Shown piece by piece: positions 36,973 to 44,017 of a stretch of DNA of 64,000 bases. Each line of letters opens with the position of its first letter. Positions within the stretch are counted from its first letter, which is position 1. A program made the position numbers and the translations under genes. The stretch is from Leptolyngbya sp. CCY15150 (GTDB lineage Bacteria > Cyanobacteriota > Cyanobacteriia > RECH01). The notes under the pieces are model-generated. The model was not told the origin of the DNA. It did not search any database and saw only the letters and a program-made list of their open reading frames with translations. Where the stretch lies: contig NZ_JACSWB010000132.1 of the NCBI RefSeq assembly GCF_016888135.1, positions 1 to 64,000 of the forward strand, in the 5' to 3' direction.

Positions 36973-38985
36973 TTACAAGGCACTGGTTGTCTCGCTGAAG
37001 TGATAGGTGCTGCGCAGACGTTGATGAACCGTTCGGTATAGCGATGGATCATCGCCCTTCATGCCAACCAGGGTGTAGAGACGTACGGTATTGCGTTCCC
37101 GCCCTTTCAGGGGATGATTGCCCACACACACCACATTCACCTCATCCTTCACCCACTGATAGACAGAATCTGTGATTAAAATATCTGTCCAGAACTTCCG
37201 GGTCATGCCTTCCACGCGGCTAGCAATATTGACCGTATCACCAATCACCGCATATTCTCTACGGCGCAAGGATCCGATATCACCAGCAACGACTTCACCG
37301 AAATTTAGACCTATACCGTTAAATAAGATCGGCTTGCCTGCATCTTGCCACTTAGCCTGTAGATGAACCAACGCCTTCCGCATCTCTAACACGGCGCGCA
37401 CAGCATTGAGTGTATCAGTCTGTTCTCCTTGAGACAGCGGCGATCCAAATTCTGCCATGATCGCATCGCCAATGAACTTATCTACTGTACCACCGGCATT
37501 TAGGATCACCTCAACCATCACATCCAGATATTCATTGAGCTGTTCTACGAGGGCTTCCGGGTCAGAGTTCATCGATAGGGTTGTAAATCCTCGGATGTCG
37601 CAGAACAGGATTGTAGCATTGAGGCGCTTACCCTTGAGTAAGGATTGGTAGTCTTCAGAATAGTGGGTGAGAATTTCCTGCACGATGGGAGAGGCCACGT
37701 ATCGTTCTAGCGTACGGCGCAAGCGCTGTTGCTCAAGCTGGCTTTGGACAGAATTAGCGACGATCGCCGTTGAACCACTCAGGGCGATCGCTCCTAGGGG
37801 AATCATCGTGGGTAACGTATACCTCCCTAAGGTAAAGCTAATATAACTAATGCTTGCCCAACTGAGAATCAGGACGAGGGTTAACACCACCTGACGGGAT
37901 GCTTTGTGAACAATCCACAGGAGAATGCCGCTACTGCCGGTGATGATCAACACCAGGATTGCATCATACCCTGGATGGGGCAGCCAATGGGTGACGACCT
38001 TTCCCTGCAAGGTGTTGGCGATCGCTGTTGCATGGAGTTCAACGCCGGGGGTTCGATCATCGAAGGGAGTGCGGACGATATCCTCTAAACTGACGGCGGT
38101 TGCGCCAATTAAGACAAGTTTGTTGTTAAACGTTCCTTGCCGCTGATGCCTAGCCCAGGTCACGGGATCTAAAATCTCCCAAAACGGTACCTGACGAAAC
38201 GTTACCCCGCCTGGGCCATAGTAGTAGAGTTCCGACCGTGCCATCTCGGGCGTGAGTGTTGTTGTTCGGTCAGCGGCCTGTAGGCTGGCCTCTGCAAAAC
38301 TTGGGATCTGAGGAATCGAGGTGGCAATTACCTCGTCATAATAGCGACTGGGCTGATCATAGATGCGGCCATCTACCCCTGGAATGACGTTAATATGTCC
38401 TTGATGATTATCCTCTGCACCCCATAGAATCGGCTGAGCTAGTTGATGGATAAGGTTACCGTCCTGAATATAGGCATCATAAAACCCTGCCAACACAATG
38501 CGATCGCCATAGGCTTGCAGGGCTTGCTCTAGGCTCTGATCGTCTTCAATGCCGTAAGAACTAGGGTCTAGGAATAATATATCTAGGGATACCGATCGCG
38601 CCCTCGCCTGCATGAGACGATCAAGGGCGATCGCATAGGCACGGCGCTGCCAGGGCCAGTTTTGGATAGGAGCTAAATCGGCATACTGTTCTGGCTTGGA
38701 TGCATAAAACTCGCCTTGGATCAGAGATGCTTGGTCAATTGCTAGAATGATAATATCGTCGGGTGGTGTGACAACCCCACGCAGTCGATAAAATATAAGT
38801 TGCGATCGCTTTTCGATCAGTTGAATTAAGGGATGGTTGGTAGCCGTTAGCGCGGTGCTGCTGAGGGTGATACACCCAATGATTAAATAGCTTAGGTAGA
38901 TAAGATTTATCTTCCGTCTACCCGATGTGCTTTTAGACGGTGGGCTGGGGTTAAATTTCAATAAAAAACGGCGTAACATGGTCAT
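36973..38985 (-). CDS. CHASE2-domain adenylate cyclase
   Basis: Protein of 670 residues. An N-terminal membrane anchor (INLIYLSYLIIGCITLSSTAL) leads into an extracellular CHASE2 sensor (about 50-330, with DIIILAIDQASL, RRAYAIALDRLM and ELHATAIANTLQGK). Three more membrane helices (about 340-415) follow. The class III cyclase domain (about 450-640) has metal-binding D463 (FCDIRGFT) and D507 (GDAIMAEFG), purine-selecting Lys in VDKFIGD, and the transition-state Asn and Arg in GDTVNIASRVEG. Lys with this context favours ATP over GTP. It should make cAMP in response to an unknown outside signal. The next gene in the same direction upstream is a FecR-domain protein, a pairing often seen in cyanobacteria. 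Confidence 0.9.
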   Translation of the reverse strand: MTMLRRFLLKFNPSPPSKSTSGRRKINLIYLSYLIIGCITLSSTALTATNHPLIQLIEKRSQLIFYRLRGVVTPPDDIIILAIDQASLIQGEFYASKPEQYADLAPIQNWPWQRRAYAIALDRLMQARARSVSLDILFLDPSSYGIEDDQSLEQALQAYGDRIVLAGFYDAYIQDGNLIHQLAQPILWGAEDNHQGHINVIPGVDGRIYDQPSRYYDEVIATSIPQIPSFAEASLQAADRTTTLTPEMARSELYYYGPGGVTFRQVPFWEILDPVTWARHQRQGTFNNKLVLIGATAVSLEDIVRTPFDDRTPGVELHATAIANTLQGKVVTHWLPHPGYDAILVLIITGSSGILLWIVHKASRQVVLTLVLILSWASISYISFTLGRYTLPTMIPLGAIALSGSTAIVANSVQSQLEQQRLRRTLERYVASPIVQEILTHYSEDYQSLLKGKRLNATILFCDIRGFTTLSMNSDPEALVEQLNEYLDVMVEVILNAGGTVDKFIGDAIMAEFGSPLSQGEQTDTLNAVRAVLEMRKALVHLQAKWQDAGKPILFNGIGLNFGEVVAGDIGSLRRREYAVIGDTVNIASRVEGMTRKFWTDILITDSVYQWVKDEVNVVCVGNHPLKGRERNTVRLYTLVGMKGDDPSLYRTVHQRLRSTYHFSETTSAL

Positions 38986-39098
38986 AAAACTCTTATTGTA
39001 ATTTTTATCTTTATGGGTTTAGTATCAGTAAAATGCGCATAGCCTACGGCATGGCTTTGCTAAAGCGACAGCGTAACGCATTCAGTCCTCATGAGATA

Positions 39099-39130
39099 GT
39101 GCATTACGGCTTCGCCTAACAGCACCCTAC
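39099..39130. repeat. Short hairpin repeat of a common cyanobacterial type
   Basis: GTGCATTACGGCTTCGCCTA and the following AACAGCACCC fold into an imperfect stem-loop. It resembles the GTGCGTTA...TAACGCAC intergenic repeats widespread in cyanobacterial genomes. A related half-copy (CGTAACGCATT) lies just upstream near 39072. Confidence 0.4.
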
Positions 39131-39238
39131 AATAAGGTTGATTGAGAGATCCCCCTACTGTCCACCTATTGATTAGGGGGCGCGCACAATAACGAGTAAT
39201 CAGACGGTGGGAAGGCGCTGCTGATCAAGCTGATCCAT

Positions 39239-39283
39239 CTAGTTGGGTTGAACCTAGTTGGGTTGAACCTAGTTGGGTTGAAC
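39239..39283. repeat. Three tandem copies of a 15-bp unit
   Basis: CTAGTTGGGTTGAAC occurs three times head to tail without change (39239-39253, 39254-39268, 39269-39283). The length is a multiple of three, so a short minus-strand frame reads FNPTR three times. Such short exact arrays vary between strains. Confidence 0.85.
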
Positions 39284-39397
39284 CCCTGCTCTTCTCTGGA
39301 AGAGCCGTGAACGGTAGATAGATAGCTGTACTCAACAACGCCCTCATCTATGGCAGTTAAAGGAGGACGGGACAAGGCGATCCCTCCGTCCTAGACG

Positions 39398-40213
39398 CTA
39401 GAAAGGTAGGCTAGGCCGAGGAGGCGCTATGGACTCTACTGGTGAACCACCGCTGGGGTACGGCACATCTGGAAAGAGCTGGGTAAAGCTCTCACGAATT
39501 TGATCCATGCCTGGCAGTTCAGTCAAGAAGGCATCGAATAATTCTCCCAGCAGAATCTCAATGAAGTCATTCGCGGTCATTCGCTCCACGGTGCCAAACT
39601 CTTCACCCTCTGTGGTTTGAATTTTTTCGCCTGCCGTCAGCGTGATGGATTCACGGTTGACATCTGATGTAACGCCTGGGCTTTCTAGGGGAGCCGCAGC
39701 CGCATCGCTTGGGGGAGCCGCAGCCGCATCGTCCGCCACCTGCTTGCTCAGCGTCACTTCACCTTCTAGTACCTGGATGGTCTCCCGGCCCGCCTCATCC
39801 ACCGACAGCAGATAGGTCGTACCTCGTACCCCAGCTAGGGTAGAAGGTGTGCAGCCATTGATCGAACCATTCACCAATAATGTACCGCTTTGTAAATTGG
39901 CACATTGCCCAATGGTCAATACGGAGTTGCTGGCTAGACGAGCGACCGCTCCTGTATTGAAGTTAATTTGAGCACGGGCACTGCCGGTACGCACGCGCTG
40001 CCCTTGGCTGGCCGTGTCGTTCACCCGAGCGATCGCCTCTTGGATATAGACCTGATCGCTATCTAAAATTTCGGTCACTCGTCCAGAGGTGATCGATTGC
40101 GCTGTACTGGGCGTACTGACCAATGCCAGCCCAAAGCATAGACATAATCCCAACGAAAAACTCAAAACCGTTTTCCAGTGACGATCCATGAACCCCGTCA
40201 ATCTTCGTAGCAT
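39398..40213 (-). CDS. Exported FecR-domain protein
   Basis: Protein of 271 residues with a signal peptide (VLSFSLGLCLCFGLALVSTPSTAQS) and a FecR domain (about 55-150: QRVRTGSARAQINFNTGAVARLASNSVLTIG, LAGVRGTTYLLSV, IQVLEGEVTLS). A low-complexity linker encoded by a direct repeat carries DAAAAP twice, and a Pro-rich end follows. CAGGAG 7 bases before ATG 40213 fixes the start. FecR domains act in envelope signalling and may bind partner sensor domains. The neighbouring CHASE2 cyclase on the same strand suggests they work together. Confidence 0.85.
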   Translation of the reverse strand: MLRRLTGFMDRHWKTVLSFSLGLCLCFGLALVSTPSTAQSITSGRVTEILDSDQVYIQEAIARVNDTASQGQRVRTGSARAQINFNTGAVARLASNSVLTIGQCANLQSGTLLVNGSINGCTPSTLAGVRGTTYLLSVDEAGRETIQVLEGEVTLSKQVADDAAAAPPSDAAAAPLESPGVTSDVNRESITLTAGEKIQTTEGEEFGTVERMTANDFIEILLGELFDAFLTELPGMDQIRESFTQLFPDVPYPSGGSPVESIAPPRPSLPF

Positions 40214-40499: not shown

Positions 40500-40645
40500 A
40501 TGCTGTGATAGGCTTAGAAAAAGCTGGTTTTAGTGGGAAGCAGCCACTAAACGTAAGGGGGAAAGTCCGGTGAGAATCCGGCGCTGTCCCGCAACTGTGA
40601 TGAGATGCGTGATCGATCTCTAAGTCAGGATGCCCGCCGCTGTCA
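40500..40645 (+). ncRNA. Cobalamin (AdoCbl/B12) riboswitch
   Basis: The conserved core is present in order: a GGTTTTAGTGG/CCACTAAAC helix, then AAGGGGGAAAGTCCGGTGAG and AATCCGGCGCTGTCCCGC, then AACTGTGA, and the 3-prime B12 box AGTCAGGATGCCCGCC. This family represses downstream genes when B12 is abundant. The plus strand downstream has only a possible 53-codon frame and, after about 400 bp, an unknown gene. None is a known B12 transport, synthesis or B12-independent enzyme gene. The exact P1 limits are estimates. Confidence 0.9.
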
Positions 40646-40675
40646 GTTCGATTCATATCCATCTGCGAGGTACGG

Positions 40676-40837
40676 ATGAGCCATTGGTTGAGTTACGTTG
40701 TGCATAATAAGTGTCTTCCATCTAGTTCTAGGCGGCAGAAATTTCCCGACTACCGTCGCGCAGGCGTCGCGCCTGCAGCAAGCCAGAGGCTTGTGCGACA
40801 GTGGACTCCATGCATATATGGATGTTTCTCCACCTGA
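40676..40837 (+). CDS. Possible small or truncated ORF directly after the riboswitch
   Basis: ATG 40676 follows GAGG by a normal distance and opens a frame of 53 codons (MSHWLSYVVHNKCLPSS...). The second half runs through a double-hairpin repeat at 40760-40796, so the natural end may have been replaced. I recognise no family. It may be the remnant of the gene once controlled by the riboswitch, or chance. Confidence 0.25.
   Translation: MSHWLSYVVHNKCLPSSSRRQKFPDYRRAGVAPAASQRLVRQWTPCIYGCFST
40760..40796. repeat. REP-like double hairpin
   Basis: GCAGGCG-TCG-CGCCTGC (40760-40776) is a perfect 7-bp stem. It is followed at once by CAAGCC-AGA-GGCTTG. Such GC-rich doublets resemble dispersed intergenic repeats of cyanobacteria. 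Only one copy was noticed in this window. Confidence 0.45.
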
Positions 40838-41042
40838 CGTCAAGTCTTCATGTTGCGACCTAGGTGATCGGCATCGTCCGCAACCCTAGTTCGCGACCCT
40901 AGTTCATAACCATGGTCAGAGGGGGGCGATCGCCTCTCTCTAGACCCATTCATGACGTTACTAGGGGCGATCGTTCCCAATGCTATGAGCGATCGCCCGA
41001 CCCTTTGCTCGTTGTTCATGTCTAGTGTATGAGACTGGTTCT

Positions 41043-41489
41043 ATGCGTTTTCAACCGGATCAGTGGACAGACCACTGTGACTCCTGGATGCCCTCCTTCA
41101 TCCACGACCATTATTTGATGATTGGCTCCATGGCTTGGCAAGGCTATCAGCAGGCGGGACGTGGGCTGGTGTTCTGTGAGATTTACCCATCTCAGGGGCG
41201 ATCCTCTAGCTTTTGGCCCTATCGTCTGCGGTTTACGCCTCAACGACATATGCCTAGTCGGCTACAGCGGCTGGCGTTAGAGGATGACACCATCGATCAG
41301 GTGGGGCGATCGCTGACCACCTATGATCCCCATCAAGCCATGGTGCTGCTGCTGGTCGCGGGTGACCAGATTGAGATCGACCTACTGCAGAATGTAGCGA
41401 TCGCTCCGGAGATCTGCCATGCCCAAATCCTACAGCGTTGGTCAGAGTTTCAGCCCTGTTTTACCCATCCCTGGCTCGATCAACCCTAG
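41043..41489 (+). CDS. Hypothetical protein, 148 residues
   Basis: I do not recognise the family. The frame is open, has HIP1 sites and normal codon use, and reads as a compact soluble protein rich in Trp, His and Gln (MRFQPDQWTDHCDSWMPSFI, then RLALEDDTIDQVGRSLTTYDPHQAMVLLLVAGDQIEIDLL). The start is put at ATG 41043; a GTG six codons earlier is also in frame and neither has a strong ribosome site. It is the first convincing gene downstream of the cobalamin riboswitch, but about 400 bp away. Confidence 0.6.
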   Translation: MRFQPDQWTDHCDSWMPSFIHDHYLMIGSMAWQGYQQAGRGLVFCEIYPSQGRSSSFWPYRLRFTPQRHMPSRLQRLALEDDTIDQVGRSLTTYDPHQAMVLLLVAGDQIEIDLLQNVAIAPEICHAQILQRWSEFQPCFTHPWLDQP

Positions 41490-41875: not shown

Positions 41876-42712
41876 ATGATCGACGCTCAATACAACCCGC
41901 CTCGTCCGCGCTGGGATGTGATCACCTTTACGATCGCCCTCCATCTGGCTGCCCTGCTTGCCATCTTCCCCGCCAATTTCAGTTGGTCGGCCGTAGGGGT
42001 TGCAGTAATGCTCCATGCCCTCACCATTGGTTTAGGTATTTCCCTAGGGTTTCATCGTCTGGCAACCCACCGCAGCTTCAAAGTACCCAAGTGGCTAGAG
42101 TACTTTTTTATTCTCTGTGGCACCTTAGCTGGTCAGGGTGCGGTAAAGGGATGGGTGGGATATCACCGGATGCATCATCTCTATGCCGATCGCCAGGGCG
42201 ATCCCCATGACTCTAGCCAAGGGTTTTGGTGGAGTCACATCGGCTGGCTGATGCACACCATTCCTAGCAGCGGTGAACTGCGGCGGTTTACCCAAGATAT
42301 CAACGGCGACCCGTTCTATGAATTTTGCCATAAGCACTACATTGCTTTGCAGGTTGTGCTAGGTGTTTTACTCTATGCCTTGGGCGGAATGCCCTGGGTG
42401 GTGTGGGGTATCTTTGTACGGCTCTTTGTGGGCTTTCACAGCACCTGCTTTGTGAACAGCGCTTGTCATATGGTGGGCTATCGCTCCCATGAGGTTGAGG
42501 ATACCTCCACCAATTGCTGGTGGGTGGCCCTGCTCACCTTTGGAGAAGGATGGCATAATAACCATCACGCGAACCAATCGTCTGTGCGATACGGCTGGCG
42601 CTGGTGGGAGCTTGATATGGTTTGGCTGACGGTGTGGTTCTTGCAATCCATGGGTCTGGCGAGTCAGGTTAAAGCAACCCTCCCTTCTAGCAAATCTCTA
42701 GCGACAAAATAG
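41876..42712 (+). CDS. desC: Acyl-lipid/acyl-CoA delta-9-type desaturase
   Basis: Membrane di-iron desaturase of 278 residues. The three histidine boxes are H60-R-L-A-T-H65, H97-R-M-H-H101 and H227-N-N-H-H231, on a four-helix membrane scaffold. GFHRLATHRSFK and the GWVGYHRMHHLYADRQGDPHD block are typical of DesC-type delta-9 enzymes, which place the first double bond in acyl chains. AAGGAG 7 bases upstream fixes ATG 41876; longer upstream frames are not supported. It abuts the cyclopropane synthase gene, so both are likely co-transcribed. The exact regiospecificity and acyl carrier cannot be read from sequence. Confidence 0.88.
   Translation: MIDAQYNPPRPRWDVITFTIALHLAALLAIFPANFSWSAVGVAVMLHALTIGLGISLGFHRLATHRSFKVPKWLEYFFILCGTLAGQGAVKGWVGYHRMHHLYADRQGDPHDSSQGFWWSHIGWLMHTIPSSGELRRFTQDINGDPFYEFCHKHYIALQVVLGVLLYALGGMPWVVWGIFVRLFVGFHSTCFVNSACHMVGYRSHEVEDTSTNCWWVALLTFGEGWHNNHHANQSSVRYGWRWWELDMVWLTVWFLQSMGLASQVKATLPSSKSLATK

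Positions 42713-44017
<1,305 letters not shown>

What the first reader, a model, noticed from the sequence alone, without database searches (positions are those of the whole stretch)
40500..41042. Cobalamin riboswitch without an identifiable target gene
The riboswitch core is complete, but the next 400 bp hold only a 53-codon frame with a fair ribosome site that runs into a double-hairpin repeat, then an unknown gene. No B12 transport or synthesis gene follows. Either the target was lost by repeat insertion, or it controls a small peptide, the unknown 148-residue protein or an antisense RNA.
Basis: partly seen in the sequence, partly recalled or inferred. Interest (0 to 1): 0.65.

Follow-up and report, generated by a model that had tools for sequence, protein, structure and literature searches.

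The report
B12 riboswitch that outlived metE
This cyanobacterium keeps a working-looking vitamin-B12 RNA switch after losing the gene such switches usually control (metE); comparison with about 150 related sites shows that the switch almost always also serves a small, unnamed protein gene, which is still here just behind it.

Summary
The riboswitch is real: Rfam RF00174, 58.3 bits, window 40508-40655. It is not targetless. In the nearest other genus the same element precedes metE (B12-independent methionine synthase), and the window's "unknown 148-residue protein" is the next gene in that operon. metE is absent from all three genomes of the window's genus; metH is present. The 148-residue family was found by protein search alone. 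It lies behind a cobalamin riboswitch on the same strand in 67 of 72 and 77 of 80 loci: behind metE, behind in-frame metE deletions, or directly. In Pseudanabaena its start codon is the one inside the riboswitch's P13 hairpin. So the riboswitch's lasting partner is this gene, sometimes with a desaturase and a CMAS gene behind it, as in the window. The protein has a CcmS-like fold but is not CcmS. In the window's genus the aptamer is 95-96% identical and P13 100%, against 60-82% around them; the protein's dN/dS is 0.10. Repeat insertion did not remove the target. Weak point: here the 148 start lies 362 nt from the switch, without the usual ribosome site or overlap.

The parts
40508..40655 (+). 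Cobalamin riboswitch aptamer (Rfam RF00174)
   Evidence: cmscan 58.3 bits, E 7e-12; local model of 17 cyanobacterial elements gives 169 bits over 40508-40690, window sequence included in the model; 94.9% / 96.4% identical in two sister genomes against 60-82% in flanks
40660..40678 (+). P13 hairpin (expression platform): CATCTG-CGAGGTA-CGGATG, with ribosome site GAGG (40667-40670) in the loop and the leader start codon (40676-40678) in the 3' strand
   Evidence: TCTGCGAGG invariant in 17 aligned elements; 100% identical in the genus; the same hairpin holds the start site of the next gene at cbiM, hupE and Pseudanabaena 148 loci
40676..40837 (+). 53-codon leader ORF starting in P13
   Evidence: ORF list; start position shared with nearly all metE/148-type elements; in the genus the length is 53/79/43 codons, so the peptide itself is not conserved
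40680..41042 (+). Spacer between riboswitch and 148 gene; the place metE (plus about 230 nt of leader) occupies in the nearest other genus; no metE remnant left
   Evidence: G003 order riboswitch-metE-148a-148b; no remnant by sensitive tblastn/blastn; no intrinsic terminator on + strand
40742..40821 (+). Strain-specific double-hairpin repeat
   Evidence: six other copies in the genome at E < 1e-3, fold z -3.5; absent here in sister genomes
41043..41489 (+). 148-codon gene: retained partner of the riboswitch, unnamed family with CcmS-like fold
   Evidence: homologues in 74 of 242 cyanobacteria; riboswitch upstream in 67/72 and 77/80 loci; dN/dS 0.10; AlphaFold pLDDT 83.6, Foldseek only CcmS E 3.7e-6
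41876..42712 (+). Fatty-acid desaturase, conserved next gene (possible further member of the operon)
   Evidence: Pfam PF00487; follows 148 closely in several distant riboswitch-148 loci
42722..44017 (+). CMAS-family SAM-dependent methyltransferase (cyclopropane synthase-like), conserved after the desaturase
   Evidence: Pfam PF02353 E 5e-89; same order in loci that still have metE, L158 and L160

Best explanation
A standard translational OFF-type cobalamin riboswitch that once headed a metE operon and now serves what is left of it. Ancestral order: riboswitch, short leader ORF starting in P13, metE, 148a (148b), in some lineages desaturase and CMAS. metE was deleted, as in several other cyanobacterial lineages that rely on metH. 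The riboswitch was kept because the 148 gene (possibly with the desaturase and CMAS genes) is itself a B12-controlled gene, made when the cobamide level falls. Proposed working: cobamide binding hides the ribosome site in the P13 loop; without it ribosomes start at the P13 ATG, and leader translation lets the downstream gene be expressed. Shown by sequence: the riboswitch, the linkage, metE loss in the genus, conservation of switch and gene, and in relatives direct or overlapping coupling. Inferred: ligand response, and how leader translation reaches a start 362 nt away in this genus.
For: Rfam hit. G003, same family, carries riboswitch-metE-148a-148b. metE absent from G000, G001, G002; metH in 59/59 genomes, CobS in the own genome. 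The 148 family, found by protein only, has a cobalamin riboswitch upstream on the same strand in 67/72 and 77/80 loci, checked with Rfam in 13 of 14 re-scanned loci. Forty genomes whose 148 locus lacks a full metE have none anywhere, only fragments. In Pseudanabaena the P13 start codon is the 148 start codon. In-frame metE deletions keep the metE/148a overlap of 17 nt. Conserved 148-desaturase-CMAS order, also with metE present. Aptamer 95-96% and P13 100% identical against 60-82% in flanks; 148 dN/dS 0.10. No terminator in between.
Against: In the window's genus the 148 start has no clear ribosome site, no overlapping upstream ORF, and lies 362 nt behind P13, so the link from switch to gene is not visible in the sequence. 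The selection argument rests on three genomes, and the 148 gene of G001 is missing at a contig end. The 148 tree puts the window protein with stand-alone riboswitch-148 copies rather than with G003's metE-operon copy (AU p 0.02, long branches present), so metE may never have stood in exactly this copy. No expression or ligand data.
Confidence: 0.66

Rival explanations
1. Relic: the riboswitch belonged to metE, metE was deleted, and the element is now a non-functional left-over on its way to decay.
For: metE absent in the genus; no coupling or ribosome site visible at the 148 start; a strain-specific repeat has entered the leader; one such element elsewhere does look degraded (L081, no Rfam hit).
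Against: Aptamer 95-96% and P13 100% identical across the genus while flanks are 60-82%; Rfam score as good as at intact metE operons; riboswitches are kept in front of 148 genes in many metE-less lineages.
Confidence: 0.14
2. Different history, same target: this is a descendant of a stand-alone riboswitch-148 copy, not of a metE operon that lost metE.
For: 148 tree groups the window with stand-alone copies (G008 second copy, G172, G239, Pseudanabaena second copies), support 91/95; AU test rejects grouping with G003's 148a, p 0.02.
Against: Long branches meet; the closest riboswitch sequences outside the genus include metE-type elements; loci with metE, L158 and L160, share the window's 148-desaturase-CMAS order.
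Confidence: 0.3
3. The real output is the downstream desaturase-CMAS pair (membrane lipid change under B12 shortage), with the 148 gene only passing through.
For: Conserved 148-desaturase-CMAS order behind the riboswitch in distant lineages, desaturase start close to or overlapping the 148/148b stop; no terminator on the + strand.
Against: Most riboswitch-148 loci, such as those of Pseudanabaena and Microcoleus, show no desaturase next to 148; in the window 386 nt separate 148 and the desaturase.
Confidence: 0.12
4. The riboswitch controls the 53-residue peptide itself or a regulatory RNA.
For: Start codon and ribosome site are conserved and lie in P13.
Against: Peptide length and sequence differ among sisters (53/79/43 codons) and it runs into a strain-specific repeat; no opposite-strand gene downstream for an antisense role.
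Confidence: 0.06

Closest known systems
Cobalamin riboswitch upstream of metE in cyanobacteria (Limnospira PCC 8005, PMC8400943; Synechococcus PCC 7002, Perez et al. 2016, cited in PMC7205611, not read)
   Same: Same RNA family; metE is the gene at this place in relatives; long distance to metE (337 bp reported in Limnospira; about 180-660 nt in most loci here).
   Different: metE is gone; the second gene of the operon is what remains.
Mycobacterium tuberculosis ppe2 B12 riboswitch with translated uORF (PMC11260477)
   Same: Riboswitch controls translation of a short upstream ORF on which the downstream gene depends, by stop/start overlap and reinitiation; the same overlap layout is seen in several cyanobacterial riboswitch-148 loci.
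   Different: Other phylum, unrelated target; in the window itself no stop/start overlap is left. Coupling is inferred here and measured there.
CcmS (Slr1911), beta-carboxysome assembly chaperone (PMC11635287; PDB 9iur, 8zlh)
   Same: Fold: mixed helix and four-strand layout; the only significant PDB matches for both 148a and 148b models; weak profile similarity.
   Different: Far below the CcmS family cut-off (at most 15.8 of 125 bits); linked to B12 riboswitches; CcmK1 binding untested.
Regulons of cobalamin riboswitches in the 255-genome survey (PMC3766115)
   Same: Categories used there include isozymes of B12-dependent enzymes, which is where metE would fall.
   Different: The categories named in the main text have no place for an unknown small protein; the supplementary gene lists could not be read here.

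Membership tests
Cobalamin riboswitch (RF00174) | Covariance model score above the curated cut-off over the full model | tested here: met
   58.3 vs 31.5 bits, positions 1-189
Cobalamin riboswitch (RF00174) | Conserved core with compensating base changes | tested here: met
   42 pairs, 16 with changes on both sides, in 17 cyanobacterial elements
Cobalamin riboswitch (RF00174) | P13-L13 stem-loop in the expression platform that can pair with L5 | tested here: inconclusive
   P13 present and conserved; its loop is nearly invariant in the aligned set, so L5-L13 pairing cannot be tested by covariation
Cobalamin riboswitch (RF00174) | Binds a cobamide and changes expression | not testable with these tools
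   needs in-line probing and a reporter
metE riboswitch operon | metE directly downstream | tested here: not met
   no metE in the genome, no remnant in the spacer
metE riboswitch operon | 148a gene as next gene after metE | tested here: met
   family member at 41043-41489; in G003 and most intact operons 148a overlaps the metE stop by 17 nt
CcmS (NF049993) | Score above the family cut-off | tested here: not met
   window protein no hit, relatives at most 15.8 of 125 bits
CcmS (NF049993) | CcmS fold | tested here: met
   Foldseek E 3.7e-6, probability 1.00, TM 0.50/0.56; 148b E 5.7e-6
CcmS (NF049993) | Binds the CcmK1 C-terminus | not tested
   needs pull-down; binding residues were not compared

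The most novel reading that the evidence does not exclude
Cyanobacteria have an undescribed B12-shortage module: a CcmS-fold protein made under cobalamin riboswitch control, translationally coupled to whatever gene stands in front of it (metE, mini-MetE remnants, CobW, a SAM methyltransferase, DUF1636 or a bare leader peptide), in some lineages with a desaturase and a CMAS gene behind. metE is the replaceable passenger and the CcmS-like gene the constant part.
Probability: 0.4. Interest if true: 0.72.

Novelty: new variant of a known kind. Interest (0 to 1): 0.58.

Why it matters
Riboswitch targets are usually read from the first annotated gene. Here recurrent loss of that gene exposes a second, unnamed partner that is kept under a B12 riboswitch across cyanobacteria. 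It gives a first functional clue (a response to low B12) for a family that matched no Pfam or NCBIfam family, links a carboxysome-chaperone fold to B12 physiology, and offers natural deletions in which coupling between an upstream ORF and the next gene can be tested.

Tried and rejected
metE remnant in the window spacer: none above chance by tblastn with 26 cyanobacterial MetE proteins and by blastn. Long-range helix hiding the gene's ribosome site: strong in one group of metE leaders (L037, L110, L129/L167) but not in the window (shuffle p 0.26). Conserved MetE-like tail as a tag recognised by the CcmS-like protein: MetE proteins not followed closely by 148a mostly have other tails, so overlap with the 148a ribosome site explains the tail better. 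Antisense role: no opposite-strand gene downstream. Repeat as cause of gene loss: absent in sisters. Intrinsic terminator or clear sigma-70 promoter on the + strand between riboswitch and 148: none found by a simple scan. Viral fold library: no informative named match. First alignment A1 mixed strands and was replaced by A2.

Full report
OBSERVATION. Rfam finds a single family in the 64-kb window, the cobalamin riboswitch RF00174 at 40508-40655 on the + strand (58.3 bits, cut-off 31.5, E 7e-12, full length). Behind it lies the P13 hairpin CATCTG-CGAGGTA-CGGATG (40660-40678). A strain-specific double hairpin follows (40742-40821; fold z -3.5; about six other copies in the genome), then the 148-codon gene 41043-41489, then a desaturase (41876-42712) and a CMAS-family methyltransferase (42722-44017). 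The genome, a cyanobacterium of 5.75 Mb, has two more, weaker elements: one ahead of a HupE/UreJ-like gene with a CobW gene behind it, one ahead of a cbiX-like gene.

WHAT STANDS THERE IN RELATIVES. In G003 (same family, other genus) the element is followed by a leader of about 240 nt, metE (749 codons), and two tandem paralogues of the window's 148-residue protein, here 148a and 148b. metE (TIGR01371) is absent from the window genome and from both other genomes of its genus. metH is present in all 59 relatives and CobS in the own genome. So the absent target has a name: metE. Both sister genomes lack the repeat at this place and still lack metE, so repeat insertion did not remove it. The spacer keeps no recognisable metE piece.

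THE 148 GENE IS THE CONSTANT PARTNER. A protein search found the 148 family in 74 of 242 cyanobacteria, and a second scan gave 80 named loci (the two sets overlap). A covariance model of 17 cyanobacterial elements with P13 (R1) was run on all these loci. A cobalamin riboswitch lies upstream on the same strand in 67 of 72 and 77 of 80. R1 was built here, so 14 loci were re-scanned with Rfam itself: 13 hold RF00174 above the curated cut-off, and the exception, L081, looks degraded. Genomes carry about two such elements each, so chance would give roughly one in a thousand per locus (my estimate). Architectures: metE between (18 and 8 loci), metE remnant (4 and 4), 148 within 320 nt of the riboswitch (20 and 22), 148 start codon equal to the P13 start codon (10 and 8, mainly Pseudanabaena), longer gaps, or other genes between. 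Those other genes, where examined, include CobW, DUF1636, a SAM methyltransferase, a TonB receptor and an FAD oxidoreductase.

REPEATED LOSS OF metE. Forty genomes whose 148 locus lacks a full metE have no full-length metE anywhere; five carry fragments, four of them at this locus. On a 148a tree the metE/no-metE label changes 8 times; strongly supported branches alone force 3.

COUPLING. In most intact operons the metE stop lies exactly 17 nt past the 148a ATG. Several deletions are in frame and keep this overlap: ORFs of 106, 104, 93, 53 and 41 codons that join the start and the end of MetE (L081, L112, L134, L229, and the L108/L174/L235/L189 group). CobW, methyltransferase and DUF1636 genes standing in metE's place often end with the same overlap. 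MetE proteins not closely followed by 148a mostly have other C-terminal tails, so the shared tail is best read as the 148a ribosome site inside the upstream frame. Where no gene is left in between, the short leader ORF that starts in P13 often ends within a few nucleotides of, or overlaps, the 148 start. This resembles the M. tuberculosis ppe2 B12 switch, in which a translated uORF is needed for the next gene through termination-reinitiation (PMC11260477). The coupling is inferred here from layout. Not every locus has it, and deletion frames are not random draws from one process, so I give no p-value.

THE WINDOW'S OWN GENUS. Against G001 and G002 the aptamer is 94.9 and 96.4% identical and P13 100%, against 82% in the upstream intergenic region and 60-74% in the spacer. 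The 148 gene has dN 0.032 and dS 0.313 against G002. Both switch and gene look constrained. A simple scan finds no terminator on the + strand between them. The weak point is that the 148 start here has no clear ribosome site and no overlapping upstream frame, and lies 362 nt behind P13. How leader translation would reach it is not visible. A ribosome-site-hiding helix seen in one group of metE leaders is not found here.

HISTORY. The order 148-desaturase-CMAS recurs in distant lineages, including two loci that still carry metE (L158, L160), which argues for a deletion at a shared locus. The 148 tree instead puts the window with stand-alone riboswitch-148 copies, and an AU test rejects grouping it with G003's 148a (p 0.02, long branches present). 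The riboswitch tree places the window among a mixed group that includes metE-type elements. I leave this open (about 0.3 for the stand-alone origin); it does not change the proposed target.

THE PROTEIN. No Pfam family; the only NCBIfam signal, in relatives, is CcmS at 14-16 bits of the required 125. AlphaFold gives pLDDT 83.6, pTM 0.77. The only significant PDB matches are two CcmS structures (9iur E 3.7e-6, TM 0.50/0.56; 8zlh E 5.9e-5). 148b gives the same answer, and profile comparison with a CcmS sequence agrees. CcmS is a chaperone that binds the C-terminus of a carboxysome shell protein (PMC11635287). So: CcmS-like fold, not a member of the CcmS family, partner unknown.

VERDICT. The interpretation 'no identifiable target' is replaced by 'metE lost, second operon gene retained'. 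Evidence is comparative only; ligand binding, transcript extent and protein function remain to be measured. The rival confidences are not exclusive: the history rival and the lipid-gene rival can each be true together with the main reading.

Noticed in passing
L037:6096-6360, L110:3087-3299, L129:3250-3512 (metE leaders): A 13-bp long-range helix pairs the region around the leader ORF stop (GUUGUAGCGUUCU) with the metE ribosome site (AGGACGCUACAAC): a candidate leader-translation-controlled metE site. Strong in one group of leaders, absent in others.
   Followed up: partly
L159:3924-4994, L160, L190, L209, L227: DUF1636 (2Fe-2S ferredoxin-like) and, in L159, a PterinBD-DUF4346 protein stand between the cobalamin riboswitch and 148a; in L190 a DUF1636 frame ends in a MetE-like tail.
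   Followed up: partly
L165:2334-4728: Cobalamin riboswitch followed by a TonB-dependent receptor (likely B12 uptake) and then a 148a gene.
   Followed up: no
L086 and L094 (G008): One genome with both a full riboswitch-metE-148a-148b operon and a second riboswitch-148 copy without metE.
   Followed up: partly
L081:4905-5113: Riboswitch ahead of a mini-MetE ORF that scores only 39.5 bits with the local model and has no Rfam hit: possibly a switch in decay.
   Followed up: no
window 39241-39285: Three tandem copies of a 15-nt unit (TAGTTGGGTTGAACC) in the gap between two opposite-strand genes.
   Followed up: no
window 36973-40213, - strand: CHASE2-adenylate cyclase and FecR-domain genes, divergent from the riboswitch; conserved next to it in G001 but not in G002.
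   Followed up: no
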